A stretch of DNA of 36,593 nt from Saccoglossus kowalevskii (lineage: Eukaryota > Hemichordata > Enteropneusta > Harrimaniidae). A model generated the notes under the pieces. That model was not told the DNA's origin. It made no database searches and worked only from the letters and a program-made list of their open reading frames with translations. Shown one piece after another: positions 1 through 31,269 of this stretch (within the stretch, counting starts at the first letter, position 1; every line of letters begins with the position of its first letter). Location of the stretch: assembly GCF_000003605.2 (NCBI RefSeq), contig NW_003137821.1:962233-998825 (forward strand), written 5' to 3'. The position numbers and the translations under genes were made by a program.

Positions 1-120
1 AAAATAATGTTCAAACGGTAAGTTACCCCGTGTTTACATTTGGTGAATCCACTATTGATGTACTAGGTTATGAGCATCACAAAAACATATGGTTGGTGTT
101 CTTTTAGCAATTATTCCCCC

Positions 121-189
121 TTTTTCAGTCAATATTTTAAAAGAAGTCTGAAAATTCATCTGCTTAGAGCACATTTCTTAATTTAATGC
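121..189 (+). mobile_element. Decayed LINE reverse-transcriptase C-terminal tail
   Basis: One frame reads FKRSLKIHLLRAHFLI then a stop, the form of the extreme C-terminus of CR1/Jockey-like LINE ORF2 proteins (FKxxLKxHLL). A one-base slip just upstream would add SVNIF in front. It lies outside the inverted-repeat arm. Only about 20 codons remain recognisable, so the assignment is tentative. Confidence 0.45.
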
Positions 190-688
190 CAATGTTAATG
201 GTTAAATTATATTTCGAAAACTTTTTATATTTTTTATAAAACAGTTAATTTTTCTTTTAATGTGATTTATATTCATGTATTGTACATCGGTGTGTGATGC
301 AGTGAACAACGCTGTGAATCAAACACGGGGAGCAATATATCAATGTAAGGTCAATGCGTACTCATATGTAATCTTAATCTTTTCACCAGTCTCCTCGCCC
401 GATTTGTTATATTTCTGGAAAGGAACCCTAATGTTTGAGCCAACAGACAACATTTGAGTCAACTTTCAGTTTTTACTAAAAAATATGGCTATGTTTGTCA
501 AAAATAAACAGAACTATTTTGCGAATTTGTGATGAAAAGTGAGAACAGGGAAAATTGAGAGATTGACAACTTCAGTGCAGTAGACCATTTTAATGGGAAA
601 TACTTGCCATTCGTCACCACTGTCTTATCGACGGTACACATCACCAACCATTTCAAAGTCAAGTCCCTTGTTGTAATTCATACAACTG

Positions 689-1236
689 TCAGGGGACAGC
701 ACATGAACACGAATTATGGTACTGGCTGTGTACAATTCTTTTTGGTCCGAGACAGGGCTCTTGTCTAAACACTATGTTTAACCTCGAGCCCACAGGGCTG
801 CTGATTGGCACCATCTTGGACATCAGCCAAATGACCCCCCAAGATTTTAATCCGTGTTCACCATGGTAAGTGCATGACCAGGAATTCACAATGCGTGCCG
901 TATGGAGTGGGGGTTAGGGAAACGCCGTCAACCTTTAGCCCTTCAAGCAAATCAGCTGTGTTTAATACACCAACTGTATGACGTGGAATTTCACCCACAG
1001 AACACTCTTGGCGATGGTCAATATTTGGTGGTATGTATTTGGAGACTTATTGTCAGGAATTTTTCGATTTAATGACAATTGCATCACAAAAAGTTGAACC
1101 TTCACTGTACATAAAATGCATAAACTGCCTTGCGACCATAAATTTTGTTTTGTCCTTTCTCTTTCTCAACTTTAGCTGCCTGTTCGGGCTTTTCTTGCTC
1201 AATGTTAGCGGCTTGTTCAAACATTTCTTTAGCTCT
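689..1236 (-). pseudogene. Decayed ORF of unknown family, left copy
   Basis: Reading the minus strand, a charged, Ala/Glu/Lys-rich segment (EQAANIEQEK, then AAKVEKEKGQNK) leads into YGRKAVY. After a +4 nt shift relative to the right copy come CDAIV and ECSVGEIPRHTVGV, then GLKVDG and THCEF. The stretch is richer in G+C than its surroundings, as former coding DNA often is. Frameshifts and stops make it non-functional. The right-arm copy is at 29068-29591. I do not recognise the family; an element-encoded protein is possible. Confidence 0.4.
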
Positions 1237-2629
1237 CTCATATTAACTTTTCACAAATAATTCATTTTGTTCTCAGGCTATTAATGTTTATTGAGCTACA
1301 ATCCGAATCATTCATTTTCCCCCATATAAACTGATTCGCAGATTCGCATGTAACTGATAAGAAGGAGATGTATGCACCAGTCTGAGATATATATATGAAC
1401 ATAACAATTCAATATTTAACTGTTTCAGATCGCGCGAGAGTTTTAATACAGGTTGTACAGTGAAAATAATTAGCGTTATTACCCCTGTCACGTTTATAGT
1501 TTATGTTCTTGATTGGATTGGATTTTTTGGGGGGATTCTGACCCAGAACATGTTTTCAATTTATCTCTTGAGAAATAAACGTAAATACTGAATACTTCAA
1601 TTGGACGTGATGTGAATTAATGTACTAACTGTAATATTGTTTGATGACCTCACTTGAAAGACATTTGGGCAATACTGATAAATATGGTTTACAATGAGAT
1701 GCAGTTCTGTGGTTTTGCACGACATAATTGCAAATTCAAAATTTGGAACGATTACGTATTGTTTCTAATATGGTTGTTTTAAAAATAATTTCATGGCATA
1801 GAAGGTCTAGTCTCGGAAAAACGAAAGCTAACATTTCATTTCTTGTTGTATGTGTACGATACTTATAGCAATATTGTTTTCTATCTTTGAGCTAAACACG
1901 CTGCATGTCAGTACATACACCCGTACGCCTATATTTGTACATACTTTGTTTCCCTGTAATATCCTTATGGTATTGAGAGTCAGTCGATGGAATGGCAAAC
2001 TAACGAAACATAATTGAAACTCGAACGGCTATCCATTAATAATTTGACTCATGGTCACAGTAAGTTTGGCTATGCTATTAGTTATAAAGTATTGCCGTAA
2101 TTACGAATGCGATTGTTTAAGCAATTTGTAACGCTTTAAAGAAACAAGGCGCAGTTTCTTGGGGAGAAATGGGAATTAAATAGATCCTTCAAATGTCACG
2201 AGCAAATAACAATGTGTATAATATATATGTTGTGTTTATGTATTTACACACGTCAAGCGCTGTAAACTGGCAATGGGAATATATGTATATGCTACAACCT
2301 GTTCTTCATACTTTACATGTCTTGTGTAGGTCTTGTACTTGTTCATGACTTATTATTGTTCCAGGGGAGATACCTTTAAGCATATGGCTTGAAGACGATC
2401 ATTAAAAACGTGACTCGAAACCTAAAGGAGATGTCGCAAACACATCATCCAAGAAAGAAGAGGTTTATGTTAAGAAAGTTGCATTGGCACGATTTACACT
2501 TAATATGACGTAGTCTACGTTTTCTGATGTGAATGTGTTAACAAAATATAGCAGTCAATTCAGTGGTGTTATCTAGGGCCCCAAATACTTGTACGGAATA
2601 ATGACAAACAATCACTGGTCTGTAATTAC

Positions 2630-2692
2630 CATATTTAACTATAATTTTAATTAATAATTAATTTATAATTAATAATCAAATATGGTAAGTCT
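2630..2692. repeat. AT-rich imperfect palindrome
   Basis: ACCATATTT and AAATATGGT bracket about 40 nt of TTAATTAATAATT-type sequence that is itself largely self-complementary. The right-arm counterpart (about 25785-25840) keeps one flank but has lost most of the symmetry. Confidence 0.55.
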
Positions 2693-3784
2693 GACGTCTA
2701 CAAAAATATAGAAGAAAGAATACATAATTCAAATTGAGCCGACCGTATGCATTTATTTGAAAAGGGTTTGACAGTTCTTTACACAACTATAATGTTGAGC
2801 GGTATATATTCCACCAATTCATGTAAATTGCGCACGTTTGCCAATTCGAATACGTAAAATATAATGACTATAATCCCTCTTGTGACTTACTCTCGATTTA
2901 CTATTAATTCTGAATTCTGGCACAAACACAATTGCAGCTTGCCTCTTGAGGAATATACACATATGTAATATATTGCAAGTAGACGTGCATTAAATTCATA
3001 TGTGAATATACTACATTGAGGTCATTTCACAATGTTAAAGAGTTTGTAGCAGGACATAATAGAACGTACGAATGTTGAGTTTGATTAGGCATACCATTCA
3101 ATACAACGTTTGTAAATTTGACCTAATATGCAACAGACTTGACATACTAACAGTTTAAACAATTAGGAACACATATCAGCACACCAGGTAAGTTTATTTA
3201 AAACATGGTGAGGCAATTACGTAATGTTGAACACAAGTAAGCAAGATCTCGTATTCATGGATATTGAATGTCAAATTTGAGCAACTGAATGATCACTAGT
3301 TTAAGAATAGCACTGACTCAGAGAAATGAATAACAAAAAATGTATATTTCAAGTCTAGTTTCTAATTACATGGAGATTGAATTGAAGTAATTTATTACTT
3401 GGAAATGCGTACTGAATGGTAACTAATTCGATGGAATTATTCTCTATGCTGGTTAAGCAGCAACATCCCAACAGATGTAATGTTGTATCAAGTTGCGTAA
3501 TCGATTTTGGCAAAACATGTCAAAAGAACTTGGAGATCATTGACAAGCTTGATATAAATTATTAAAGCCATTTACTAGCTGTATTGTTTGGGGACACTGC
3601 TGCGTTTGCATTCGAGACGAAGTAATTATGTTTACGGAGTTAATTCGTAATGTGGTCTTTGTAGAGAACTAGTAAAGAACGATATGATGCTTGTAGTAAC
3701 GGCCCGTCATCGGAAAGACTGTGGTGTACCTTCAGCCAAGCAAACAGAGGTTATTTTACACATTTTGCCCAGCTTGCGGCATTC

Positions 3785-4135
3785 CAGTTCGATAACAAAT
3801 ACATTATGCGTTCTTGTAACTACAATTGTGTGCCAGGCAAGCAACGAATATTGTAACATTCACGGCAAGTTCTTACACTTTTCGCAATACCACTATTCCA
3901 ATGCAGTAAAATGTATATTTGCATATGTATATGACACTATTTATCATATTTTGTACTACTAATATATTTCACCTTTCTTGCAAGTTGGGCCTTTTATTTT
4001 TAATTTAATTTTATTTTATTTTATTTTATTTTGTTTGGAATTCCGGGTCCGATAAAGTGTCAATATTTTTTACAAGACAGAGATTTTATTTTATTTTAAA
4101 ATACCCTATTATTCAGTAATAACCGTATGACACAT
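3785..4135. other. Left-arm-specific segment with (TTTTA)n tract
   Basis: The right arm has only about 85 unrelated A/T-rich bases at this place (24640-24725). The segment includes a TTTTA pentamer tract (4008-4033) and a second short one (4084-4098). It is either an insertion or a replaced tract. No terminal repeats were recognised. Confidence 0.5.
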
Positions 4136-4501
4136 TACATTATTTGGCAAACTGTTTATGTATTACTAGTAATTTGTTTATTGTTTTGTGATATTGTACT
4201 TTTTAACATGACATTTGTAATAGGTTATGTTATATACATTATACATTGTTAGGGTAGTTAATATTGCAACCGTTTATCATCAGGAATTTATCATAATCAT
4301 GACCATGACTTTTGTACTTTCAGCTCTACATGAAACGGTTGTAAAAATTATATGTTTCAAAACATTGATTATTTGTTGTTGATTAAGTACATACATAAGT
4401 TAATGGTCAATGCAATGTTAAGTTGTGGACTGTTTTACAAAGTGCCGTATTTTGAAGCATAAATTAGTTTAAAATTATAAGCAGTTATCATAAATATTGT
4501 A

Positions 4502-4543
4502 ATATATATATAGATATATACATAGATATAGACATAGATATAA
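4502..4543. repeat. (TATAGA)n-like microsatellite
   Basis: A run of TA followed by GATATA and CATAGATATA units. The right arm lacks it. Confidence 0.7.
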
Positions 4544-5555
4544 GCTTCAATCTGATTAGTAACGTTAATTTACCACAATGAGAATTAATTAATTAATGTG
4601 TAAATGTATGTTTTATAAAGAAAGATGTGGTACTTTAATCATTCTATATATACATATTGTGTGTACGTTTAGACATGCAGCTTCAACTACAGTGAACCGT
4701 GTTTAATGTGCTATGCACTTGGTGCAAGCATATTTTGGTGTTGATATTAAATTAAATTGTGCTGCTATTTTAATATTTTCTTCTCTTCGTAATTGTTAAT
4801 CAAATATAATTTACATTAGTCGTGATATATAATTGTAAGGAAGCACACTTTGATTTCGTTATTTAACTAAGGTTCAGTTTCCATGACAACATGGTAATGT
4901 TTTGTATTCAATGTTCAATACACGACATCTGTCGCGATATTTGGTATTTCATGGTTTCATCGTGCATGGTTTCATGAAATTGTATATAATGTTGGCGATT
5001 AGAGATGATTTCGCATATTTTTTTGTCATTTTCTTTGAAAATAGATGCGTGGACCAAAGGCATACACAAAGACTCTGTGTGCACTCGTGGTTGGTAATTT
5101 GTAGAACATTTCATAGTTGATAATGGCAACCGTACGGATACTGTGTACGATTTAAAAAAAAAACTGTTTTGATTATGTCTTAATATAACGTCCTGTAAAA
5201 TAATTTAGGAACAATTTTGAAAAAGAAATTTTAAAATCATTGCGCATTAAAATAATAAATGAACGGTACAAATGTTACAATATCTTTGCTCTGTTCAAAC
5301 TACTACTTCCGCAGTATTTAAGTTTGTAATAAAAAAATAAAAAAAAATAGTTCTGGTTATAAAGAATGAACTAGTGGTAGAATCCAAGATCGTGTTTCCA
5401 GTGTTAGACAATGGAAGAGTGCGGATGTGGACGTTCTTGATTGTAATCTAAGTGTTCTTAGTTCATATTCAAATGGTATCAGACAAACATATTGCAGACA
5501 TGATACAAAGTCTGCTCAATTTGGAACGCAAAATCTTACATACATGGATAGTGAC

Positions 5556-6107
5556 AGAATCGACGATTATGAAATCTAGTGCATGCATAGTTACGCATAA
5601 CATCCTATGTGGTGTGTTACTTTATAACTCCTTAATTCTCCCATATTTATGATATGGATTAGATGTCTGTGGTAGTACTTACCGTACTTTCCTTGATCCA
5701 ATTTATAAACAACAAAAGAAACTGGTTCGCATTATAATGTTTTAAATCAGACTAACTCATAGAAGACCTGTCTTTCATTCGCTGGGTTTTCTTGACATCT
5801 ATGACGAACGCAAGCTACAACTAGCATGTTTTATTCAGGATCTGTACAACAATAATCCCCCCCGTGATCTAAGTAATTCTCTCTTCATGGCCATTTATAC
5901 CAAACTAGATCATTGTCAAATGAAAACTTTGCCTGCCCAAATAAAAGAACTACTTTTGGTCAATTTTCCCTGGATTACTCTGGAACCAAATTGTGGAATA
6001 GCCTTCCTAACCATGTTAGAAATATTTCCAATCGCAATATTTTCAAGCAAACATTAAAAGCACATTTATCCAACTCATATAGTTTTCCATTTACATACCA
6101 GTGGTGA
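5556..6107 (+). mobile_element. Decayed LINE ORF2: reverse-transcriptase C-terminal region (left arm)
   Basis: One frame reads YNSLILPYL, a stop, YGLDV, STYRTFLDPIYKQQKKLVRII, another stop, then THRRPVFHSLGFLDIYDE and RKLQLACFIQDLYNNNPP. After one frameshift it reads RTTFGQFSLDYSGTKLWNSL, PNHVRNISN and FKQTLKAHL, with a stop at 6107. This is the typical C-terminal order of CR1/Jockey-like LINE reverse transcriptases: ILPYLxYG, then QKKxxRII, then GxxxWNSLP, then FKxxLKxHL. At least two stops and one frameshift make it dead. The sequence to about 6300 looks like the matching 3'UTR because it is shared with the right arm. The catalytic core is absent from the fragment. Confidence 0.82.
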
Positions 6108-6304
6108 AAAACAACTACCATGTAAAACATTATAGTGTTTGTATTAATATTTGTTTTTATTTCTATTAGATTCTATAAATGTAATTTTATTTCTTAACAA
6201 AACGCCCGCCAAAATGATTATTTAGCTCTATTTGTATTCGGGATCAGACTAGACTAGCTTCACCTAAGCTATGTTCTGCTGCCCAACCATTACTGCTCAT
6301 CTTA

Positions 6305-6668
6305 TATAGTTATATTCTTAATGTAGATTTCCTCATGATTTAATGTGAATTTCGTCTTGATTTTAATAGTTATGTATAGCATAATGGTTAATAAATTTAA
6401 TTTATTAAATACATTATTAAAATATTTATTAAACACAGCGCTGAGTTATGTGACTGTAAATGTTAACAATGTCCATTATAGCAAGATACGTATCATTCCT
6501 ATAGACGGTATAATACATAATAAATGAAATAGACTTGATGACAATTTCGTACATATTTGAACATGTTTACCAACTGTTATTTGTAAGCGATTTTTGTATC
6601 CAATGTTCATACATTCATGGAGAAAAAAAACTACAGTGTAAAACTATTACTATTATTGTTTGCGTGTA
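6305..6668. other. About 360 bp left-arm-specific insertion
   Basis: Left and right arms match on both sides: the word ATTACTG(C)(A/T)CATCTTA before it and CTATGATTTGCA after it. In the right arm these flanks are nearly adjacent (about 23000-23020). The insert is AT-rich, with no coding content and no clear terminal repeats. Confidence 0.6.
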
Positions 6669-7856
6669 AACGCTATGATTTGCAAAATCTTGCACAGTAC
6701 ATGTGCACGAACAGCATTACATAGTCGAAGCTCATTTAGTATAAATGAAATTACCATAAATGCTGTCTTGGTTTATAACTATATAGCAACACTCGCGCGT
6801 GAAATAATAATTGATCTTGTTACGATGAACATATTTCTCAAACAAGAAAGTAGGTGACATCTACAGTGAATTAATCATCTAGTATTTAATTTCATCTATG
6901 TTTCGGAAGTTAAAGTCAGAACGTCACATAATGATGTGGTGTATGCCCTGTGAATATCAAGTAGTTTATTTGCCTGCGACCAACAGTATATATCCGTTAG
7001 TTATGTGAGTGGAACACACTTACATAGTTACATGCCTTTTAATGAATACCCTCTATTATATCCCGAACCTTTCTTCTATGTCATCTGTAAGTACATTGGT
7101 AGAGGAAAATCGATGCAATAATTGCGACACTCTATCCTGTGTGTATGTTTTACCAAGAAAAGTTAAGATTCTCAACGCTTTACAGGACAAATAAACATAT
7201 ACTGTGATAAAACATATTTATATCTATGTTAATATTTCGAATATTACTACCATACTTAGTCCTTGACAAACAACACGAATATTATGCAAAATATTAAAAC
7301 TAAAAAACAAATATATTATTGTGGAGATTATGATCCATAACCCATCAAATGAACTGTCACATACATATGATTTATATTCTTAGACTACTCTTAGGTTACG
7401 CAACGTCGCATCAAGTATAAAGTCGTATATCAGTCTCACAATTACATTGAAAGTACTCTCTCTATCTTGTATCTAATTACTGTATATGCCCTCAGTAAAT
7501 ACGACGGTTTATGATCAATACATTGCAATGTGTAGACTAATTGGCAAAGGCAACAATCAATGCGGCGATTCACAGACTAGGTTTTGTATGTACTTCACAC
7601 TTGTCTCTGTAGCTAATACGTATTTTAAACAGTTTATCCTCTTTGTTCGCTACCTAAAAAGTCAATTATATAACAAGACAACGTAATTGACTTTTGTAGA
7701 GGACTATGTAAGCATTTTACTGTGTGTTTATTTTGTATGAAGAGCGGTTTCAAACGTCGGTTGAAGTCCATTCTCTGTAAATAAAAATTGTTAGCAAACG
7801 CGTGTTCCAATTATTTGCAATTTAAAGATTAACCAACGACTGAGCTTAAATTAAAA

Positions 7857-7964
7857 TGGGGTGGGGTGGGGTGGGTAGGGGTGGGGTTGGGCTGGGTAGG
7901 GGTGGCGTGGCGTGGCGTGGCGTGGCGTGGCGTGGCGTGGCGTGGCGCAGCGTGGCGTGGCGCA
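7857..7964 (+). repeat. GGGGT / GGCGT pentanucleotide array with G-quadruplex potential
   Basis: Starts with GGGGT-type units and slightly longer variants (7857-7903), giving nine runs of three or four G separated by 1-2 nt. It then becomes a regular GGCGT array with two GCA interruptions. It occupies the same arm position as the ACACT array at 21754-21824 on the other side. Confidence 0.95.
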
Positions 7965-8029
7965 GAGTTATATCACATGGTTTCAAGAATCAATAATAGT
8001 GTAAGCATTTAATATTGGAACAAAGCTTT

Positions 8030-8345
8030 TTAGGTATTTTAATTATATAATTATCAAATGGTCTTTATTGCAAAACTGCTATGTACGCACTATTCTGTGC
8101 TGTGTAACATCGTATAAGCAAGCACATTTGACAGCCTTCGTTGGTGTATTAACAGCCGTAATAAAAACGATACATAAGACTGTTAACATATATAAACATA
8201 GATAATTAAACCTCTGTGAGTGATCACGAATATAAAGACCACCTGCCCTTTAATGATCACTGGGTAACTTACACGTCAAGCAACTAACATTCAAATGCCA
8301 CCTGTCTGTTGTGTCCGGTGATCGCCCTTTTAACGATCGATTGGT
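8030..8345. mobile_element. About 315 bp left-arm-specific insertion with internal imperfect repeats
   Basis: Absent from the right arm, where the flanks meet near 21590. It contains two related motifs, TGCCCTTTAATGATCACTGG and CGCCCTTTTAACGATCGATT (about 8247-8342). These and ATATAAAGACCACCTG resemble a dispersed repeat I recall from marine invertebrate genomes; that resemblance is from memory only. No coding sequence. Confidence 0.45.
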
Positions 8346-10000
8346 AAAATGAACCCGTCTATAAAGGCCGAAATGATGGATAATGATTGCAAGTTTACTC
8401 TGAACTCTTTATTCAGTAATCAAATGAGACTTTTATACTCTACGTATGTCCTATCTTCAGATAGCTGTTGAAAACTGAAAATCATATTGAGATAGTACTG
8501 CCATATGGTTGTTTTCAATAATTAATTAATCTCCTTATGAATATCACCTAGTACTGTATATTTCATTTCATCATCTTGATGTTCACCATGCACATGTTTA
8601 ACTGTGTATATATTTATATCTGAACTGTTTTCATTATATCATACCGATATTGTATATGTTTTTTATGTACTGAGTTACTTTTATATTTGATTAAATTAAA
8701 TTAATATGGCGACGTTCACGCTTGTCTGGTATAGAAAATAATCCAGATGAAAACAATTTTTCTATAACAAATGATAGTAATTTACAGCGACCTAACGAGT
8801 GAATTCGCCGTCATGGCCAGCGGTGACTCCATACTCGGCTAAGCTACAGTAAATGGAATTTCTGTCTGCGGGGAGTTGATGGTATAAATGTAATTATCTC
8901 ATAAAATCGTTATAATTCGTCATTTATCAATAATAATTCACTGTGTCGTATCGTTGTTCAAATCGCTCGAATATAGCTTTCATTATTAGTTTGACATCAT
9001 TTCAACGACGCAGACGTTCCTACTCGATAGGATTATTGATGTGATTGCAAATAGCCAGTTTAGTCGATAAAAAGACGGTTTTAAAGGCGGACGTCCTACT
9101 GAAGTAAGTGCAAACACCTTGCGTAACGATGTGCGGGCAAACACCGACTTCAAGTCAGGAACTGGTTTTAATTAAGATAAACGTAATACAAATTACGGAA
9201 TTCAAATTGCAAGGCGTATAGTGTGACGCTTTGTACATATGTAATACATATATCGACTGTGTTATTAGTTTGAAACAGCGGTATGTTTTACCATTATTCA
9301 TCAGAAAATGGATAATTGAAACACCAACCTAGTTCTACTTCAACTGTTTTAGATATAATGAATAAATTACCGGTAATAAAACCTAACATTTGTGCCATAA
9401 AAACTAATTGCTCATTATGTGAGAAAAAGTAATTGCTGTTGTTTCTGTAGACATATGTTTTATCAGAATCATTACACGATTGCTGCACGTGTTCTATTTC
9501 AAATACATTAACATATTTTTTTTTATTTTTATGTCCAAAACTTGTGAATGCTTACTTCTGACATTATTATTAAAGTTAACACTATGTCTGAAATCATATC
9601 TTAAGCACTTTCGTTCAATTCTAACTAAACGTAAATTTTCGGTCACGGGCATTGATCATGCAATACGCCGCTAATAGACAACACAGAACAAACACAATGG
9701 AAGATGACGAGGCATAATAAAACCTTGTTAGATGGGGAGAGCCAGAATTTTCATAAAGCAAACATAAAGTAGGGTTAGATAAGCTGGTAAATGGATTTCC
9801 CTGAAACGTCGCAGAACCATGAAGATTATCTTCTTGTCTTTTTTATATTCTGTAAATGAGGTATCAATCGGCACAGTCATGTCTAATAAATAAATGCAGA
9901 CAATAGTGATGTAATGTAAAAATGTCCTACGGGCGGCCATATTCGATCGAATCATTTATATATTACATCATATTAAATGCTGAAAAATATCACTGGAAAG

Positions 10001-10585
10001 TCCTCATACAATCCTGTTTGAAATATGCCTAATTAACCGACATGGTTTTTAAATAGCGAGACAAATTTACGTGTTTAGACTTATTAGTGCAACTAAGTGA
10101 GTATGTGAAAGAGATAATAAGTAATTGTCCAGGTTGTTTATCATTGCGTATTCTCATAATAATTTCCAAGATCAAACATTTCTAAGGATCCATTGAATCT
10201 TGTGATACCATTAACACCAGGGGTTGATTTAAATAGACTCAGGACCTAGAATTTGATCTCTATCGCACATATTGATACCAGTGTTATATTATGCAGATAA
10301 CTTACATGACGTGACCTTTAACAGTGGCCTTGAGGAATATTCTGCAGCTGTACACTTGTGTTAACTTACAGCTGAGGCAATTGGGACAAGAAATACTTAC
10401 AATGAATACAAATAATGACATCAAAAACAAAACAATATATAGCAATATATGATTGCTTGCTTGAGTTGTCTATGGACGTGGACATTAAACATGTTATTTG
10501 CATTTTTTGATTAAATTCATGATTGATGCTTAGGAGCATGCATTGTTTTACAACGTACTTCAAGGCTCAAGACCGGAAGGTAGCT
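10001..10585. other. Spacer sequence 3' of the GPCR gene, no gene seen
   Basis: Lies between the left-arm inner edge and the candidate poly(A) signal. It has only short chance frames and no match to the right arm. Confidence 0.7.
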
Positions 10586-10591
10586 TTTATT
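10586..10591 (-). terminator. Candidate poly(A) signal AATAAA of the GPCR gene
   Basis: The minus strand reads AATAAA about 370 nt past the stop codon, the first canonical hexamer I found downstream. This would give a 3'UTR of roughly 0.4 kb. There is no transcript evidence. Confidence 0.45.
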
Positions 10592-10963
10592 GGGACGGAT
10601 GCAAAGAATATATAAAAATGTCCCATGTACATAGGCTTGTTAAGATTCCTAAAAATAAACATGTATGGCAGAGGCGCATTGAGTTACACTGAATCTGGTA
10701 TAAGTTCACATCTTCTTCGAGTGCTGTCTGGTTTGGTTATGTGAAGTGCCGATCCTCAAGTATTGGGTAATATGAAACAACTTCTCGCACATGTACTTCC
10801 ACAAGACGTTGTGGGTAAGTATGTTATCGAAACAAGGTTTGAAATCAAAAACTGGAATTACTGCCTCGCACCCAAACTATAGGTTATACCATCTCAGTAC
10901 GCGAGTCCCATTCTGATAAAATTCATCCTTCATTTCGAATTCAATTTTAGAATCCAACTGAGA

Positions 10964-11705
10964 TTACACTCTGTCCCCCACATCGTGTTGTACGCTGCTT
11001 TCGCTGCCATCACTGTTGAACCATATTTCATTGGTGTCCAAAGTTGACGTGTCATCGTTGGACTCGATGCTGCTTTTCCCTAAACTATGCGAAGAACAGC
11101 AAGTCAGCTCACAGAAACCACGACGAAAGTTCGCGCTCATGATGGAATAAACGACCGGTTTATATACACCTATCGCATAGAATGTGGTATCCACGAGGAA
11201 TTCGTAAAGAGAATACCACTTATTGTCATATAACGAAACGCGTTTAATGAAAAATGACACTATTGTGTCTATGACAGTTGGGAGTAGCAGAGCAGTATAT
11301 AATCCCACCAGAGTAATAAGTAAGTGTAACGCCCTCTTACAAGCAGACACGATTTTGTTATTTGTCGATAGCAAAACCTGGGCCTCTGTCGATCTAAGAA
11401 ACGCGTTGATCTTCGTAAACGAAACACTGATAATTACTAGTGGTAGAACATATAACAGGAGAACACGCGAGAGAGAAACCCGTAACAAATTTGATGAGCC
11501 GTCATTAAGGTTACATACACGAATTGACGCATTGGCGGCGCTGTCATTTGAATGGGTATGATTAGATTCACGCCACACACTACTGAAAATGGACGCTGGG
11601 ATGGCAGCAGACACGGAGAGCAATTGAATGATGATTGCTACAGTGAAGAACTTTTTCATAGTCCGAATGCTGTATGTTCTGAGTTCACGGGATAGTATAA
11701 AACAC
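10964..11705 (-). CDS. GPCR exon 4 (ICL2 through C-terminus)
   Basis: Acceptor GGTTTTTGTAG|G with a good pyrimidine tract. The first base completes Arg3.50 (AG+G); the next codon is Cys133, so the usual DRY reads DRC. The exon then encodes ICL2 (FILSRELRTYSIRT), TM4, the glycosylated ECL2, TM5 (YVLPLVIISVSF), ICL3, TM6 (LLLP), TM7 (KPVVY), helix 8 and a 43-residue tail ending in GDRV and TAA (10966-10964). The longest open frame starts at an internal ATG (11659), which is only Met148 and not the true start. Confidence 0.95.
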
Positions 11706-18693: not shown

Positions 18694-19603
18694 GATATCC
18701 TAGTTCCTAGTAGATCAACATAAATATCAAGATTAAGTTAGGTGTGGCGGGAGTTGAGTAGGTTTTGTGGTTGCACTAAAGGTATACGTGGATATATTAA
18801 TGTGAGTGATGACGATGATATAGTATACTGCCGACTAAAGTCGAATAATCAATGTTCAAGATGCACATCACATGCCCCACCAAACTGGATGTTCCATTAT
18901 TTCGGTAGGGGTGTCGCCCAGGAAGAATGAGGGAACCTTCCTTTACGTCATTCATTATTAATGGAACCCAACTTATCAACACTATAATCTGATACAAAAC
19001 TCGAGTATTTCTCTATTAATCACGTTTGTCTCGAGTTTAAGTATTAGTGTTCATAAGGGGAAACGTGGTGAACGTTTCAAAAGTCGCGTGGACCACGGAA
19101 GACGAGAGTTCCGGTTGACATAAAAAAATCATAATTCTTGTTACGATAAAATGTGTGTTTTTCAAATGAGGAAGGTTTATGGAATAAATTAGACATAGAG
19201 AAATTTCAGATCCAAAATAGTTACTATACCAAATTGGTCATCTAGTATTAAATATTAAAAGATAATAACATTGATATTCATATGTGCGATACAAATCCAA
19301 CCCAAGGTCCCGAGTCTATTTCAATCAAACCCTGGTATGACAGATTTCAATGGATCTTTGGAAATGTTTGATCTTGGATATTGACATACGCGATAATCAA
19401 CAACCTAGACAAATACTTATTATGTATTTCACATACTCACTTAGTTGCACTAATAAGTCTAAAGACGCCAGTTTGTCTTGCTGTTTAGTAACCATCTCGA
19501 CAATTCGTTTGATTTCAAATAGGATCTGCATGAGGACAGATCGCTTACTTTTTGTCGTACAATGAACATGTTATCATATAAACTATTACCTTTATACTTC
19601 GAC
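18694..19603. other. Region upstream of the GPCR start, up to the right arm
   Basis: Should contain the 5'UTR and core promoter of the minus-strand GPCR gene. I see no convincing TATA box or initiator and no other gene. Short frames at 18742-18997 on both strands look like chance. Confidence 0.6.
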
Positions 19604-21753
19604 TTTTCCAGTGATGTTTTCTGGCATTTAATATGATGTACTATATAAATGATTCGATCGAATATGGCCGCCCATAGGACATTTTTACATTACATTACTA
19701 TTGTCTGTGCACATTTTTATCAGCCATGACTGTGTCAATTGATACCGCATTTCCAGAAAGTAAAACAACAAGAAGATAATCTTCATGGTTCTGAAATTCT
19801 ACTTTGTAGTGAAAATCCGGATATAGCTCTGTAGAATCTTGTGTAATGCTCATGCGCAGTTCATTCAAATGTTATCTATAAATTGGGGTTATCATGTATG
19901 TCATCCATTTAAGAGAACATTCTGTGATCTTTCAGGGAAATCCATTTACCAGTTTATCTAACCCTAGTTTAAGTTCGCTGTCGAAAATTATCAGGAGGCT
20001 CTCCCCAACTAACAAGTTTTCATTATGCCTCGTCATCTTACATTGTGTTTGTTCTGTGTTGTCTATTAGCGGCGTATTGCATAACACATAGTATCAGTGC
20101 TCGTGACCGAAAACGTTACAGAATTTACGTTTAGTTTTTTTTCCTGCATTGAACGAAGGTGCGCAAGATATGATTTCAGACAAAGTATTAACTTTAATAA
20201 TAGTCAGAAGTAAACATTCACAACAAGTTTTTGACATAAAAATAAGAAAAAAAAAATATGTTAATGTATTTGAAATAGAACACGTGTTTTAATGAAGCAG
20301 TAATCAAGTAATGATTCTGATAAAACATATTTCTACAGAAACAACAGCAATTACTTTTTCTCACAAAATTAACAATTAGGTTTTATGGCACAAATGTACA
20401 GTTCTATTTCCGGTAATGTATTCATTAAATCAAAAAAAGATAGTCATTCCGAAACGAGCAGTTTATAATTATCATAAAAATATCACCATCTTAAAACTAG
20501 GTTGGTGATTCAATTGTCCATTTTCTCATGAATAATGGTAAAACTATTTTTCAAATTACATATCGACAGTTTCAAACTAATAACACAGTCGATATATGTA
20601 TTACATTCGTGCAAACACTATACGCCTTGCAATTTGAATTACGTAATTTGTATTACGTTTAAACAAATCATTTATCTTAATTAAAACCATGTTCTGACTT
20701 GAAGAAGATGTTTGCCAGCAGATCGTTACGCAAGGTGCTTGCACTTACTTGAGTACGACGTCCACCTTTAAACCAGGCTTGTTATCAACTAAACTGGCTA
20801 TTTGCAATCACATCAATAATCCTATCGAGTAGGAACGTCTGCTTGGTTGAAATGATGTCAACTAATAATGAAAGCTTTATTTGAACGATTAGAACAACGA
20901 TACGATACAATGAATTATTATTGATAAAAGACGAATCATAACGATTTTATGAGATAATTACATTTGTACTATCAACTCCCCGAAGACATAAATTGCATAT
21001 AGCGTCGCTTAGACGATTATGGAGTCACCGCTGTCCACAACGGCGAATTCACTTATTAGATCGCTGTAAATTTGTTATAGAAAAACTGTTTTCATCTGCA
21101 TAATATTCTATATCCGACTAGCGTAAACGTCGCCATATTAAATTAATTTAATCAGTATACTCTAGGAGTATTGGGTGATATAATAAATGGTAGAATGTAG
21201 ACTACGTTGCTCTTAAAACGCGTTTTATGTGCATATTTCAAAAAATTCGTTCATACCGCATATATATCGTGACCCCCTTCCGGCTGTTACAGTTCAGATA
21301 TAAATATATTCACAGTTAAACATGTGCATAATGAACATCAAAGTAAATAAATGAGATATACAGTACTAGGTGATATTCATGAGGAGAATAAATAATTCTT
21401 GAAAACAACTATATAACTATACTGTCTCAATTTATCTGTCAGTTTTCAACAGGTATCTGAAGATAGGACATACATAGAATATAACGTTCTCATTTGATTA
21501 CAGAGAAATTGGGAATGCAAGTGAAGAGTTTAGAGTCCAGAGTAAACATGCAATCATTATCCATCATTTCGGCCTTTATAGGTTAATTTTACCTTTGTTT
21601 CAATATTTAATGATTATACTATTATAGATTCTTGAAACCAATCGATAGAATATTAATCAGCAGATGTACTCGGCATTGTTGATTTCCAAATTATTCTAGT
21701 GAGATCACATTCACTGTTTACTATTCAGATGGGAAAGTTGTTTTGTTACGTTA

Positions 21754-21824
21754 TACACTACACTACACTACACTACACTACACTACACTACACTACACTA
21801 CATTACACTACACTACACTACACT
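21754..21824 (+). repeat. ACACT pentanucleotide array (right arm)
   Basis: About 13-14 tandem CTACA/ACACT units with one CATTA variant. Flanking sequence (TTAGCTCAGTCGTTGGTTAA on the array's right side) matches the left arm beside the GGCGT array, so the two arrays occupy the same ancestral site. Confidence 0.95.
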
Positions 21825-22235
21825 GCAATACAATATAAACTTAGCTCAGTCGTTGGTTAATCTTTAAATTGCAAATAATCGAAAAACGCGTTTGTTAAAA
21901 TGGACTCTATCCGTTGTTTGAAACCGCTCTTCATACAAAATAAACACACAGCAAAATGCTTACAAAGGCTTCTAAAGAAAGTCAATTACGCTGTCTTGTT
22001 ATATAATTTACTTTTTAGTTAGCGAACAACGAGGATAAAATGTTATAAAATACGCATTAGCTACAAAGACAAGTGTGCAGTACACACAAAATCTAGTCTC
22101 TGAATCGCCGCATCGATTTTTGCCTTTGCCAATTAGTCTACACATTGCAATGTATTGATCACAAACCGTCGTATTTACTGATGGCATAGACAGTAATAAG
22201 ATACAAGATGTAGAGAGTACTTTCAATGTAATTTA

Positions 22236-22800
22236 ACTGTGTGAGACTGATACACTCACGTCACCAACGGGTATAAACTGATTATACCTAATGCGACATT
22301 AAACACGTTGCGTAACCTAAGACTAGAATATAAATCATTTGTATATGACAGTTCATTTGATGAGCTATGGAACATAATATCCACAATTGTTTTTTATAAC
22401 TTTAATATTTTGCATAATATTTTGTTTGGCAAGGACTAAGTAAGGTAGTAATATTCAAAATAATAATATAGATAAAAATAAACATAGATATTTTATTACA
22501 GTTCATGTTCATTTGTGGTATATGGTGTTGAGAGTCTTAACTTTTTTGGTAAAAAATACATATAGGAAAGAGTGGCACAATTATTGCATCGATTTACCTC
22601 TAACAATGTACTTACTGATTTTGATGGGTATAATAGAGGGTATTCATTAATAGGCATGTGACTATGTAAGTCTGTCTCACTCACATCACCAACGGATATA
22701 AACCAACTACTTGATATTCACATGGCATACACCGCATCATTAACTGACGTTCTGACCTTAACTTCCGACACATAAATGAAATTAAACACCTTGCAAAACT
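22236..22800 (-). repeat. Internal duplication in the arm, units about 430 bp apart
   Basis: On the minus strand, GTTTATATCCGTTGGTGATG with GTGAGTGAGAC (about 22675-22705) recurs as GTTTATACCCGTTGGTGACG with GTGAGTG (about 22250-22285), each after a GTTTAAT word. The left arm retains the first unit (near 6985) and a shortened second (near 7400). The third copy at 34813-34975 shows the same motif. Confidence 0.55.
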
Positions 22801-23214
22801 CGAGACTAGAAGATTAATTCACTGTAGATATCACCTACTTTCTTACTCGGGAAATATGTTCCTCGTAACAAGATCAATTATTATGTCACACGCGAGTGTT
22901 GGTATTTTGATATAAACTAAGAAAGCATTCATAGTAATTTTATTTTAAACAAAATGAGCTTCGATTATATAATGCAGTTCGTGCACATGTGCTGTGCAAA
23001 TCATAGTGTGAGATAAGATGTGCAGTAATGGTTGGGCAGCAGAAAATAGCTTAGATGATGCTAGTCTAGTCTGATCACGAATACTGATGGAGTTAAATAA
23101 TCGTTTTGGCAGGCGTTTGTTAAGAAATAAAATTACATTAATACAATCTAATAGAAAAAACAATAAATATAAATACAATAAACTCGGTTAGCAATAATGT
23201 TTTACTTTTATTTT

Positions 23215-23450
23215 TCACCACTGTTATGTAAATAGAAAACTAACTATGTGAGTTAGCTAAATGTGCTTTTAATGTTTGCTTGAAAGTATTGCGATTGGAA
23301 ATATTTCTAATATGGTTTGAAAGGTTATTCCACAATTTGGTTCCAGGGTAATCTAGGGAAAATTGACTAAAGGTGGGCAGGAAAAATTTTCATTTTACAA
23401 GAATCTAGTTTGGTATGAATGGCCAGGAAAAGAGAAATAACTACTGTTAC
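23215..23450 (-). mobile_element. Decayed LINE reverse-transcriptase C-terminus (right arm copy)
   Basis: The minus strand reads QFSLDYPGTKLWN, then NHIRNISN and FKQTLKAHL and a stop, matching the left-arm LINE relic. About 315 bp present in the left copy (5557-5872, encoding ILPYL to YNNNPP) are deleted here at about 23445. A further 13-nt deletion just before QFSLDY breaks the frame. Confidence 0.8.
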
Positions 23451-24678
23451 TATCCATGTATGTAAGATTTTGCGTTCAAGAATGTGCAGACTTGATATCA
23501 TGTCTGCAATATGTTTGTCTTAGACCATTTGAATATTAACTAGGAACACTTAGATTACAAACAAAAACATTCACATTCGCACTCTTCCAAAGTTCAACAC
23601 TCGAAACACGATCTTGAATTCTACCACTAGTTCATTCTTTATAGCCAGAACTATCTTTAACTCCCAGAACACACTTAAATACTGGGGAAGTAGTAATTTG
23701 GACAGAGCGAAGATATTGTAACATTTCTAGTGTTCATTTATAATTTTAATGCGCAATGATTTTAAATCGGAGCAGTTTTCTTTTTCAAAATTGTCACTAA
23801 ATTATTTTAAAGGACGTTATATTCAGACATAATCAAAACAGTTTCGTTTTTTTTGTTTTTAAATCGTACACAGTATCACGGTTGCCCTTATCAACTATGA
23901 AATATTCCACAAATTACCAACGACGAGTGCACGCTGAGTCTTTGTGTATGCCTTTGGTACTGGCATCTATTATCAAAGAAAATGACAAAAAATCATCTCT
24001 AATCGCCAACTGCATATACAATTTGATGAAACCATGCACGATAAAAAGGTCATTATCTAACAAACCCTATGGCGTTGTTCTATTTTCCTCGTGATATAGG
24101 TAATTTGAAGTACCAAATATCGCGACAAATGTCATGTATTGACCTTTAAATACAAAACATAGCCATGTAGTTACTGAAACTGGACACTAGCGGTGTGCAT
24201 CATTAATTTATTCCATAAATAATCAATTCTGATAAAATATTACTATTCTGATAATTGTCGATAGTTTTAAATTTATTTAAGCTTCAAATTTTACGATTGC
24301 GGTACTGTGTAAAACAGTCTACATCGTAACATTGGGTTGACTATGAACTCATGAATGTGGTAAATTAACAGTTTGTTAACAAACAAACGAACCCGTTTTG
24401 AAACACAGATATTTTTACAACCGTTTTTTTGTAGAGCTATAAACCAGAAAATTGAGAGAATATTACAAATTACAAAAGATCATGGTCATGACATGATAAA
24501 TTACTGATGATAAACGGTTGAAATATTGAGTTAACTAACAATTTGTATTGTATCTAACATAACCTATTACAAATGTCATGTTGAAAAGTACAACATCACA
24601 AAACAATAGACAAAATATATGCATAGACAGATTGCCAAATAATTTAATGTTTCTTGCTTGTCTGGTGCACAAATGTAG

Positions 24679-24707
24679 TTTATTTTTTTTTATTTTTTTT
24701 ATTTTTT
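24679..24707. repeat. Poly(T)/TTTTTTTTA tract
   Basis: Three A-interrupted T runs, possibly a retroelement A-tail on the minus strand. It sits where the left arm has a different, longer segment. Confidence 0.7.
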
Positions 24708-26249
24708 AACATCTTCACCATGATTTAATGCCGCGAACCGGGCAAAATGTGTAAAATAACCTCTGTTTTCACGACTAAAGGTACACCCACAGCCTTCCCG
24801 ATGACGAGCCGTTTAATACACGCATTATTCAATACTAGTTCCCTACGAAGAACACATTATGAATTGTCTCCATAAACATAATTACTGTCCCCAAACAATA
24901 CAACTAGAATATGGTTGCAATAATTTATATCAAGCTTTTCAATGATCTGTAATTTCTTTTGCAATATTTTGCCAAAATCGATTACGCAACTTCATACAAC
25001 ATTAAATCTGTTGGGATGTTTGCTGCTTAACCAGCATAGAGAATAATTATACCGAATGAGTTACCAATCAGTACGCAATTCAATCTCCATGTAATTAGAA
25101 ACTAGACTTGAAATATACATTTTCGTTATTGATGCCTCTGTGTCAGTGCTATTCTAAAACTAGTGATCATTCAGTTGCGCAAATTTGACATTCAATATCC
25201 ATGAATACTAGGTCTTGCTTACTTGTGTTCTACATTACGTAATTGCTTCACCATGTTTTCAATAAACTCACCTTGTGTGCTGTTATATGATATGATGGTA
25301 TGTGTTCTTAATTGTTTAAACTGTTAGTATGTCAGGTCCGGGTTTTGATGTATATTGCATGTTAGGTCACATTTCAAACTTTGTATTGAATAGTATGCGT
25401 AATCAAACTCAACACTGCGTACTATTATGTCCTGCTACAAGCCCTTTAACATTACGGAATGAATGTAGTATATCTACATATGGATTTAATGCACGTCTAC
25501 TTGAAATATATTACATATGTGTATATTCCTCAATGGTGTTTGTGCCAGACTTCAGAATTAATAGTAAATCGAGGGTATGTCACAAGAGGGTTTATAGTCA
25601 TAAAATTTTGCTCACTTTGAAGAGGCGAACGTGTGAAATTTACATGAATTGGTGGAATAGACACCACACAGCATTAAAGTTGTATAAGGAACTGTCGCAC
25701 CTTTTTTCAAATAAATGCATACAGTCAGCTCAATTTGAATAAAGTATTTGTTCTTCTATATTTTCGTAGACGTCAGACTTCCCATACTTGAGCACTAATT
25801 ATATTATTAATTAAAAATATTGTTAAATATGGTAATTGTAGACTAGTGATTGTTTGTCATTGTTTTATATATAGTATTTGGGATCCTAGATAAAACGACT
25901 GCATTCACTACTATATTATGTTAAAACATTGACAACAGAAAACGTACACTACGTCATAATAAGTGTCAATCTTTTCAATATAACTTTCTTAGCATAATGA
26001 TTCCATGCGCTCTAGCAAATGCAACTCCCTCTTCATTTGCGACATTATCTTGAGGTTCCGAGTAACGTTTTTAATGATTTTCGTCAAGCTATATACTTAA
26101 AGAATCAAACGTATCTCTCCTGGCACAATAATAATTCATGAACAAGTACAGGAACATCAAATTTAAATAAACATGCAATAGGATCTATACCAGGCATGTA
26201 AAGTATGACGAACATGTTTAATATAGCATTCACATATATTCCACTATGC

Positions 26250-27930
26250 TGAAATCACACAGTGACAGAAAGTGTCATATATAATGTCACCTGGAAAACA
26301 AACTAGCGTGTTTGCAATTGTTAGCACCTTCTACCTCAATATATCACATCTACTCAAATCAGAACTAGATTGAATGTGAATAAATGAACGTAAATATATG
26401 TCATATCACTACTTCAACGAGAATGTTATAATATAAAAAGTGTATTTTTTAAAATTTTAAACGTATATTTGAAAGGAATTGAAATGTTTGCAAGAAATTC
26501 TTGAACTAAAGAAAGCAAATGAAACAAATGACCTCATGACCCCGTGTGATGAAAAAATGATATGGATCACTGACTCTGACTCTTATCTAAGATGAAAACA
26601 AAAATCAATCGGCATGTGCACAACACTTATCTGGTAAATGCTCTTGCCCATGCAGGGTGCCCTTGCACATAGTCGTGCATGGAAGGTATGTCATTTATGT
26701 TTGTGATTAGTCAATTAATAAAAAAAAAACATGACTGATGTTTAAAAAATGAGCATTATCTATGTTTTGGTTATTCAGTGGGCCATTGTTAATTTACATA
26801 AATATAAAGATGTATTGTATCTATTGTCATTTGCTCATGAATAATTCAAAGCATGCCACTTGAAATTGGACGGATTCATCTATTCAAATTTCTCCTCAGA
26901 AACTCGATTGAAAATTGCAATAGCTCAGTCGTTAGAGAGACTACCCGCTGTGGTTGATGTTGCGGGTCCCCTCCAACTTTTTTCACTAATCAAGGAAGAA
27001 CTCTCCCCCCTCGTCAATTCCAGATGTTGCACTTTGTCTAAAGCTACACAGTTTTGGTCTTAGTCTGCTTTACAATAGCGGTTTACAAATGTTATGAAGC
27101 TAAGACAATGGCGGTTTATGAATATTTCTTTGTACCAATAACGCTTAGTGTGACCTGTTTAAACTCTGCATAATAAAAAAAGATTACTGAAATAAATCAA
27201 CGGCCGGAACAATTGATCACGTGACCAAAAGTAGTAATAACAGTAAATTAACTGGATCATCTGAAATCATGGCCAAATGATTCTTTTTATTATTCACGCT
27301 TATTTTCGTAAAATATGAAGCACATTTTGCATGTTCTAAGTTTCATTTCTGGTAGGGCTCTGGAGGTTTAACTGCGTGTAGCAAAGACTGTGTACACATG
27401 ACAAATGCATCTATACCTTAAATGAAATCAGCACAAGTATGGCTGAGAACTGAGTGATAATATGGCCACGCTCAAACAACTTGATGTGCATATACAATTC
27501 TATACATTTTCTCTTTGTACCCACTCTAAAACAATTTTAATGTCTTCTTCCAGTTTTAGACAGTGATATTTGATTTGTTTTACTAATCCTTGACTAGTGA
27601 TCTAGTGCCGGAAACTGAATATCTTTTCGTTGTAATATCCCCACATGAGCAAGGCCCACAACATTCGATTAATACTAAATGTTATCAGTAACAAACGCAT
27701 AAAATACGTTCGCACTTTATTTAAATGACGGACATTTTTCATAATAAAATGTTATCAGTGTCACGTTTACTAATCAACCGGATGACTGAATTTATCCCAC
27801 AATCAAATTTATCATATTAAACATTTCTCGTTTCCATGTTTGTATAATATTTTGAGTAGCTATAACTGCGCCTGGCTACTTTAAAGTGTAATAAATTGTT
27901 TAAACAATTGCATTCGTAATTATGGCAATT
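26250..27930. mobile_element. About 1.7 kb right-arm-specific insertion
   Basis: Left-arm sequence 2155-2270 spans this place with only about 100 bp. The insert holds the tRNA-like SINE head and one copy of a tandem 243-bp unit. There is no intact ORF; the 67-codon frame at 26860-27063 overlaps the tRNA-like part and is unlikely to be coding. It may be several nested insertions. Confidence 0.6.
26915..26980 (+). mobile_element. tRNA-derived SINE head (degenerate)
   Basis: TAGCTCAGTCGTTAGAG (26921-26937) closely fits a tRNA D-arm / pol III box A. ACCCGC (26943-26948) and GCGGGT (26962-26967) could pair as an anticodon-like stem, followed by a degenerate box B (GGGTCCCCTCC). It has no proper acceptor stem, so it is a SINE or tRNA pseudogene, not a working tRNA. 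Confidence 0.5.
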
Positions 27931-28172
27931 ATGGCAAACCCATAAAATACGTTCGCACTTTATTTAAATGACGGACATTTTTCATAATAAAATGTTATCA
28001 GTGTCACGTTTACTAACCAACCGGATGATTGAATTTATCCCACAATCAAATTTATCACATTAAACATTTCTCGTTTCCATGTTTGTATAATATTTTGAGT
28101 AGCTATAACTGCGCCTGGCTACTTTAAAGTGTTATAAATTGTTTAAACAATTGCATTCGTAATTATGGCAAT
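27698..28172. repeat. Recent tandem duplication, 243-bp period
   Basis: Copy 1 (27698-27929) and copy 2 (27941-28172) differ at four positions that I count in about 232 bp. The last ~60 bp of each unit match left-arm 2100-2155. The copies are far more alike than the two arms are, so this duplication is younger than the inverted repeat. Confidence 0.93.
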
Positions 28173-29067
28173 GCTTTATAACTAATAGCATAACCAAACC
28201 TACTGTGACCATGATAGTCGTTGAGTCAAATCATTAATGGACAGCCATTCGAGTTTCAGTTATGTTTCGTTAGTTTGCCAGTCCCTTGACTGACTCTCAA
28301 TACCATAAGGATATTACGAGGGAACAAAGTATGCACAAAGACAGAAGTACGAGTGTATGTACTGACATACAGCGTATTTAGCTCAAAAATTAGAAAACAA
28401 TATAACACACACGACAATAAATAAAATGCTAGCTTTCGCTTTCGTTTTACCGAGACTAGACCTTCTATGCCATGGATTTATTTTTAAAACAACAATCTTA
28501 GAAACAATATGTAATCGTTCCAATTTTGGAATTTGCAAATATGCCGTACAAATCCACAGCACTACATCGCGTTGTAAACCATATTTATCAGTATTGCCCA
28601 AATGTCTTTCAATTGAGGTTGTCAAACAATATTACAGTTAGCACATTAATTTACACCACGTCCAATTGAAGTAATGAATATTTACGTGTATCTCTCAAGA
28701 CATAGATTGAAAACATGTTCTGGGTAAGAATCCAAAAAAAAATCCAATCTAATCAAGAAAATGTCTATAAACATGACAGGGGTAATAACACTAATTATTT
28801 TTGCTGTACAACCTGTATTAAAACTCTCGCGCGATCTGAAGCAGTTAAATATTAAATTATTATGTTCATATATATCTCAGACTGGTGTAAAAATCTCTTT
28901 CTTATCGGTTATATGATGTGCCAGGTTTGGGAAATTACGACCGCACTGTAATTTCAATCTACCATTTTGCGAGTCAGATAATATGGGGTGAAAATAGAGG
29001 ATTGGGATTGTAGCTCAATAAATATTAATGGCCTAGGAAAAACTGAACTAGCGGCAATTTGTTAATA

Positions 29068-29591
29068 TGACAGAGCTAACTAAACAAAAAGAAATATTTA
29101 AACAAGCCGCAAATATTGAGCAAAAAAAGTCGCACAAGCAGCTGAAGTTGATAGAGTAAAGATAACACAAAATTTATGGCCGCAAAGCAGTTTATTATTA
29201 TGATAGTGAAGGTGCAACTCTTTGTGATGCAATTGTCACTAAATAGAAAAACAAGGTGAAATTTCTGGCAATAAAGGTACTAGTCTCCAAACACATACAC
29301 CCGGGCCGGCCAGATGGACCAAATATTGACCATCCCTAAGAGTGTTCTGTGGGTGAAATTCCCCGTCATACAGTTGGTGTATCAAACACAAATGATTTTC
29401 CTGAAGGGCTAAAGGTTGACGGCGATTCCCTAACCAACACCCCATGCGGCAACAATTGTGAATTTCTGCAATTACCATGGTGAACACGGGTGGCAATCTT
29501 GGGGAACATTTGGCTGATGATCATCTTGGAGATTCCCGGTCCGATGTCCAAGATGGTGCCAATCAGCAGACTTGGGGCTCGAGGTTATATA
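29068..29591 (+). pseudogene. Decayed ORF of unknown family, right copy
   Basis: An upstream frame from ATG 29068 reads MTELTKQKEIFKQAANIEQ and stops. From 29175 a single frame runs 139 codons to a TAG at 29592, broken by only three stops (29244, 29337, 29481). Readable parts are YGRKAVYYYDSEGATLCDAI, ECSVGEIPRHTVGV, GLKVDG and NNCEF. The stop at 29337 (TAA) is CAA in the left copy, so it arose after duplication. This is a former protein-coding segment that I cannot assign to a family. Confidence 0.45.
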
Positions 29592-30060
29592 TAGTGTTTA
29601 GACAAGAGCTCAGTCTCGGACCAAAAAAAAGTGTACACAGCCAGTACCCGGATTCATGCTCATTTGGTGTACCCTGACAGTTTGTATGAATTGCAACAAA
29701 GGACTTGACTTTGAACTGGTTTGTTATGTATACCGCCAAGAAGACAATTGTGGCAAATGGTTAGTGCATGGTCTACTGCACTGAAGATGTCAATCTCATA
29801 ATTTCCCCAGTTTCCTCTTTTCAACGCAAATCCGCAAAATAGTTCTCTTTATTTTCTTCATTTTCCTACAGAAGTTTGGAACAAAATTGGCCATATTTTT
29901 TGAGTAAAAACTGGAAATTGACTCAAATTTTGTCTGTTGGCTCAAAAATTAGGCTTCATTTCCAGAAATATTAAAGAATATAAAAAATTGTAGAAACAAT
30001 CGCGCGAGTCTGGTGGTGAAATGGTAAGATTACATATGAATACGTCATTAATCTACAGAA

Positions 30061-31200: not shown

Positions 31201-31269
31201 ATAAAACTACCAAGTTTGCATGCGACTAAAATTTTATCATTAATGAGGAATTATGAAATCATGATTATG

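What the first reader, a model, noticed from the sequence alone, without database searches (positions are those of the whole stretch)
325..30060. Giant inverted repeat (about 10 kb arms) enclosing one GPCR gene
Left arm and right arm are reverse complements over almost their whole length, separated by 9.6 kb that contains the complete GPCR coding region. Edges are sharp on the inner side. Divergence of 10-20 % with many indels shows it is old and not an assembly duplicate. Such palindromes are usually unstable, so persistence around a gene is notable. It could reflect an inverted segmental duplication, two opposed insertions of a long element, or a composite mobile unit.
Basis: seen in the sequence. 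Interest (0 to 1): 0.7.

Follow-up and report, generated by a model that had tools for sequence, protein, structure and literature searches.

The report
Orientation switch in GPCR gene array
The big inverted repeat is real but ordinary: its two arms are neighbouring copies of one duplicated receptor-gene unit that meet where a local row of such copies changes direction.

Summary
The inverted repeat is real: 409-10287 matches 19265-29971 on the opposite strand as one collinear series (0 of 20 shuffles gave any inverted hit). The spacer holds one complete four-exon class A GPCR, nearest in sequence to bombesin/GRP receptors, and a 337-base N gap that three paralogous units bridge.

The reading of a special repeat enclosing a gene does not hold. 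In the window's own genome the series flank, arm, GPCR is a unit repeated along the same scaffold. Copies A-D and the left arm (E) lie one way; the window's gene unit (F) and the next one (G) lie the other way. The left arm is the upstream part of a unit whose GPCR is missing. Its inner edge is a rearrangement junction near 10287-10290; the outer edges are not edges. The nearest copy of F is D, not E.

Best reading: a local tandem gene array in which a block was flipped, or duplicated in inverse orientation and then trimmed. Which is unresolved: the reciprocal junction was not found and large N gaps surround the region. Ordinary gene-cluster evolution; low interest.

The parts
1..10287 (+). 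Left arm: upstream part of array unit E, same orientation as units A-D; it lacks its own GPCR
   Evidence: Best tile matches to A-D all parallel and to F and G all inverted; no GPCR match in this stretch at E 1e-3
10287..10290 (.). Rearrangement junction between unit E (upstream part) and unit F (3' flank), uncertain by a few bases; no shared sequence seen at the break
   Evidence: Read by eye from the alignments of E with A, B, C, F, G and of the F 3' flank with B, C, G, which both stop here
10291..10963 (-). Truncated 3' flank of the unit F GPCR gene; in copies B and G the 3' flank runs on for several kb more
10964..11705 (-). GPCR exon 4 (742 nt with stop codon)
   Evidence: 7tm_1 in the joined protein
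11992..12092 (-). GPCR exon 3 (101 nt)
12341..12486 (-). GPCR exon 2 (146 nt)
15342..15678 (.). Assembly gap (337 N) in intron 1; copies A and G have only 20-31 bases between the two aligned sides
18546..18693 (-). GPCR exon 1 (148 nt, start codon at 18693)
19265..29971 (-). Right arm: upstream part of array unit F, continuous with its GPCR
29972..36593 (-). Outer flank of unit F, repeated in parts in units A-D; its counterpart in E, if any, lies beyond the start of the left contig

Best explanation
The window lies inside a local tandem array of a segmental unit in an animal genome (animal inferred from the gene type). Each unit is at least about 26 kb and carries one bombesin/GRP-receptor-like GPCR gene with long upstream and downstream DNA. 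Units A, B, C, D and E run one way, F and G the other. The inverted repeat is the place where direction changes: the left arm is what remains of unit E upstream of its lost GPCR, the spacer is the GPCR gene of unit F, and the right arm is the upstream DNA of F. Shown: the copies, their orientation in the assembly, the junction and the open genes. Inferred: the event. I favour an inversion of a block of a direct array, with one break between upstream region and GPCR in one unit and the other just 3' of the GPCR in a further unit, over an inverted duplication of a block followed by a deletion. The GPCR copies look kept by purifying selection; I see no function for the repeat itself.
For: Own-genome search with the inner end of the left arm: 8 matches at 6 places, the query's own included, all on scaffold C2915 between 813 and 1019 kb. 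BLAST of the window on 230 kb of that scaffold (about 71 kb of it N) shows the series flank-arm-GPCR repeated. Best hits of 400-base tiles: E parallel to A 23 of 23, B 17 of 17, C 17 of 17, D 24 of 24, and inverted to F 25 of 25, G 22 of 22; F parallel to G 43 of 44, and inverted to A 48 of 48, B 29 of 31, C 51 of 52, D 37 of 37, E 24 of 24. GPCR copies A, C, F and G are open over 378 aa with the same four exons; dN/dS 0.22-0.45 in 6 of 6 pairs. E|F junction: both homologies stop within a few bases, while in B and G the 3' flank goes on. F is nearest D: 88.7% against 86.5% to E, D+F 100% in the inner-half tree (A, B, D, E, F, G), and E with A outside (C,D,F,G) at 98% in the outer-half tree (A, C, D, E, F, G). 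E is the best match of F in 4 of 62 tiles with a hit, of 63 tested.
Against: The reciprocal junction that an inversion predicts was not seen. The D GPCR site is in a 32.8 kb N gap, and from 1031501 to at least 1070000 all is N. For E, F is not a distant copy: it ties with A overall (86.5% each) and is the best match in 7 of 26 tiles, second to D with 10. Pairs D-F (arm) and C-G (gene, 91.5%) form a mirror order that an inverted block duplication would also give. Copies are mosaic: coding pairs A-F and C-G are closest among four (dS 0.071 and 0.085), the 3' flank pairs B with G, so simple trees of units may mislead. Not every gene copy is clean: B is cut by a gap and its exon 4 matches in two frames near the C terminus, probably a frameshift or sequence error; A has a GC donor after exon 3.
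Confidence: 0.88

Rival explanations
1. A variant within the array reading: inverted duplication of a multi-unit block (for example C-D copied as G-F), followed by deletion of the GPCR of unit E and of the F 3' flank at the centre.
For: Mirror order of nearest copies: D nearest F in 14 of 25 arm tiles with a hit (26 tested), with 100% support in the inner half; C nearest G in the gene region at 91.5%.
Against: Needs two events and a copy of several units; B is nearest G in the 3' flank (87.8% over 2,894 columns); among the four complete genes F is nearest A (the D gene site is in a gap). Gene conversion could give the same pairs.
Confidence: 0.35
2. The palindrome is an assembly or scaffolding error: two contigs or paralogues joined the wrong way round.
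For: The spacer has an N gap, the array is repetitive, large N gaps surround it.
Against: The N gap lies inside GPCR intron 1 and is bridged collinearly in A, C and G; exon phases across it fit. The E|F junction is inside a gap-free stretch with no shared sequence seen at the break. G, beyond another gap on the same scaffold, has the same orientation as F, although its placement also rests on scaffolding. No reads were available to test any of this.
Confidence: 0.1
3. The arms are two opposed insertions of a long mobile element, or terminal repeats of a composite element carrying the GPCR.
For: Two long inverted copies around a gene; a stretch at 5746-6104 looks by eye like the end of a LINE open frame (recalled pattern; no Pfam hit).
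Against: The arm probe was found only on this scaffold (one 491-base probe, counts are lower bounds). No outer ends. In copies A, C and G, and in B up to its gap, the arm is continuous with its GPCR gene. No mobile-element domain in 10 arm and flank frames scanned, of 187 window frames of 50 aa or more.
Confidence: 0.02

Closest known systems
Tandemly arrayed gene clusters with a minority of inverted members (vertebrate survey PMC2547482; abstract and passages seen)
   Same: Local duplicates of one gene with its surroundings, mostly in one direction; the survey gives 72-94% parallel pairs in tandem arrays
   Different: Here two of seven units run the other way, and one unit (E) has lost its gene at the switch point.
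Inverted segmental duplications / large palindromes with gene copies (recalled; listing only)
   Same: About 10 kb inverted arms with a spacer of about 9 kb
   Different: Arms are only about 86% identical at aligned bases, and the nearest copy of F is D; the gene is in the spacer and belongs to one arm's unit
Bombesin / gastrin-releasing-peptide receptors (class A GPCR)
   Same: 7tm_1 domain; best solved-structure matches are bombesin receptor subtype 3 and GRP receptor
   Different: No ligand known; four coding exons; locally multiplied; no receptor tree was built here

Membership tests
Tandem array of a segmental gene unit | Several copies of the same gene with shared flanking DNA lying next to each other | tested here: met
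   Units A-G on C2915, 800-1031 kb; GPCR exons seen in A, B (parts), C, F, G
Tandem array of a segmental gene unit | Gene copies open and constrained | tested here: met
   4 of 4 copies with all exons in view are open, dN/dS 0.22-0.45. B is cut by a gap and exon 4 matches in two frames near its end; the D site is in a gap; E has none
Palindrome made by direct inverted duplication of one segment | The two arms are each other's nearest relatives | tested here: not met
   F is nearest D (88.7% against 86.5% to E; D+F 100%; E best match of F in 4 of 62 tiles). For E, F and A tie at 86.5%
Gene-conversion-maintained palindrome | Near-identical arms | tested here: not met
   79.6% with gaps, 86.5% at aligned columns
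Transposable element with long inverted ends | Defined outer ends with target-site duplication | tested here: not met
   Homology to other units continues past both supposed outer ends; target-site duplications as such were not searched for
Transposable element with long inverted ends | Dispersed copies in the genome | tested here: inconclusive
   One arm probe: only C2915; a second arm probe did not complete
Bombesin-type GPCR | Class A seven-helix receptor with best match to that subfamily | tested here: met
   PF00001 E 3.2e-32; the first 6 rows of the 60 shown (709 matched) are bombesin subtype 3, GRP and neuromedin-B receptors. Only solved structures were compared; no tree was built
Bombesin-type GPCR | Activation by a bombesin-like peptide | not testable with these tools
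   Needs an assay

The most novel reading that the evidence does not exclude
The array is a multi-unit palindrome whose opposite-facing copies still exchange sequence by gene conversion: D-F identity is 94-97% in five neighbouring 1,000-column blocks of the inner arm, against 79-93% in the other blocks with data. Unit E, which has kept its long upstream region without a gene, would then serve as a donor or shared control region for the facing receptor gene.
Probability: 0.07. Interest if true: 0.4.

Novelty: new member of a known kind. Interest (0 to 1): 0.15.

Why it matters
It shows a local multiplication of a neuropeptide-type receptor gene in an animal genome, with a clean switch point where inversion and inverted duplication could be told apart. 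For the question asked, it removes a claim: there is no sign of an unusual stable palindrome guarding a gene. The general point is that a window-limited view of a tandem array can look like a giant inverted repeat.

Tried and rejected
Mobile element reading: rejected. Simple inverted duplication of E into F: rejected, because F is nearest D. Assembly duplicate: unlikely (divergence; bridged gap). tRNA and Rfam scans: no hits. Pfam on 10 arm and flank frames gave nothing above curated cut-offs; the best was Amastin E 0.0022 at 1361-1588, 18.4 bits against a cut-off of 27.2. Full extent of the array and the reciprocal junction: not reached. I read the abstract and passages of PMC2547482 (12 of 13 places); all others were seen only as listings with abstract starts.
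Full report
The observation. Comparing the window with itself shows one collinear chain of 13 inverted blocks, from 409-10287 against 29971-19265. It has 8,363 aligned columns at 79.6% identity with gaps counted; 0 of 20 windows shuffled within 50-base bins gave any inverted match. With gap columns left out, the arms are 86.5% identical over 7,838 columns. The window also holds a 337-base N gap at 15342-15678, inside the spacer, which the finding does not mention.

The gene. The spacer codes on the minus strand for a complete 378-residue receptor in four exons: 18693-18546, 12486-12341, 12092-11992 and 11705-10964. It matches Pfam 7tm_1 at E 3.2e-32. Its best solved-structure matches are bombesin receptor subtype 3, GRP receptor and neuromedin-B receptor (709 distinct sequences matched, 60 shown). 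The N gap lies in intron 1.

The surroundings. The inner end of the left arm has 8 matches there at 6 places, itself included, all on this scaffold between 813 and 1019 kb (one probe of 491 bases; the tool says its counts are lower bounds). I fetched 800001-1070000. Of this, 32,796 bases before the window and everything from 1031501 on are N, with further gaps. The series outer flank, arm, GPCR is repeated as units A (800-822 kb), B (841-862 kb, with a gap), C (868-891 kb), D (909-929 kb, then the gap), E (the left arm), F (rest of the window) and G (1005-1031 kb).

Orientation. I cut the window into 400-base tiles; two tiles with too many N were dropped and the last 193 bases were not tiled. 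By best hit per unit, tiles of E match A in 23 of 23, B 17 of 17, C 17 of 17 and D 24 of 24 cases in parallel, and F in 25 of 25 and G in 22 of 22 cases inverted. Tiles of F match G in parallel in 43 of 44 cases, and A, B, C, D and E inverted in 48 of 48, 29 of 31, 51 of 52, 37 of 37 and 24 of 24. So five units face one way and two the other. The inverted repeat is the switch point.

The junction. The left arm stops resembling the other units at about 10287-10290, a place that in F lies about 570 bases upstream of the GPCR start codon (19265 against 18693). At the same bases the 3' flank of the F gene stops resembling those of B, C and G, while B and G go on resembling each other for several kb (87.8% over 2,894 columns and further blocks). 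Unit E shows no GPCR match in the window (E 1e-3). So the junction looks like a rearrangement break that joined the upstream part of E to the far end of F. At the other side, 325 and 30060 are not ends: similarity to units A, C and D goes on past both.

Is the join across the N gap right? In copies A and G the two aligned sides of the gap lie 20-31 bases apart; in C they lie 100 bases apart, but there 125 window bases beside the gap are unaligned. The order is the same in all three. The four exons of F give an open reading frame with the same exon lengths as A, C and G. The scaffold join is therefore well supported. The E|F junction is within a gap-free stretch, without a shared sequence at the break that could have misled an assembler, as far as the alignment shows. 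I have no reads to test it.

How the copies are related. Of F, the nearest unit in the arm is D (88.7%) before E (86.5%) and G (86.3%); of E, A and F tie at 86.5%, D has 86.1%. Trees put D with F at 100% in the inner half (A, B, D, E, F, G; 3,086 columns) and E with A outside (C,D,F,G) at 98% in the outer half (A, C, D, E, F, G; 2,503 columns). Of 62 F tiles with a hit (63 tested), D is best in 21, C 14, G 10, A 9, B 4, E 4; of 26 E tiles, D is best in 10, F 7, A 3, G 3, B 2, C 1. Among the four complete GPCR copies, A-F (dS 0.071) and C-G (dS 0.085) are nearest, the other four pairs 0.177-0.207; dN/dS is 0.22-0.45 in 6 of 6 pairs. Copy B, cut by a gap, matches in two frames near the end of exon 4, probably a frameshift or an error, and copy A has a GC donor after exon 3. 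The 3' flank pairs B with G. The pattern is a mosaic, as expected with unequal crossing-over and gene conversion (inference). It speaks against a simple inverted copy of E into F, but does not by itself decide between inversion of a block and inverted duplication of a block.

Interpretation. Most likely a direct tandem array of a GPCR unit suffered an inversion with one break between upstream region and gene in one unit and another just 3' of a gene in a further unit; this explains both truncated sides of the junction in one event. It predicts a reciprocal junction, which I did not find; it may lie in the N stretches or beyond the fetched region. The rival is an inverted duplication of several units with a central deletion; the mirror pairs D-F and C-G speak for it. 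Neither is unusual: in vertebrates 72-94% of neighbouring pairs in tandem arrays are parallel and the rest are not (PMC2547482, abstract and passages). The arms, about 86% identical at aligned bases and separated by about 9 kb, are not the kind of near-perfect palindrome whose stability is a puzzle (general knowledge).

Verdict. Ordinary gene-cluster evolution with a clear switch point.

Noticed in passing
window 27692-28172: Tandem duplication of a 243-base unit, two copies at 97.9% identity, in the right arm. A, C and D match as if they had one copy; G has two partial copies of its own; the left arm keeps only the last 66 bases or so.
   Followed up: partly
window 5746-6104: Two overlapping frames resemble by eye the C-terminal end of a LINE reverse-transcriptase frame (recalled pattern); no Pfam hit.
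   Followed up: partly
window 14241-14640: About 330 bases in GPCR intron 1 that also occur in the 3' flanks of units B, C and G: perhaps a short interspersed repeat.
   Followed up: no
window 7857-7962 and 21754-21832: Different simple repeats (TGGGG/GTGGC and TACAC) at corresponding places of the two arms, so they arose separately or diverged fast.
   Followed up: no
L029, scaffold C2915:1005114-1005185: A stray fragment matching the start of GPCR exon 2 (75% over 24 residues) beyond the 3' end of the unit G gene: perhaps a remnant of another gene copy.
   Followed up: no
L015, scaffold C2915:861102-861355: GPCR exon 4 of copy B matches in two frames near the C terminus, so this copy may carry a frameshift or a sequence error.
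   Followed up: no
window 15342-15678: The only gap in the window is probably over-sized: copies A and G have 20-31 bases between the aligned sides where 337 N are written.
   Followed up: yes
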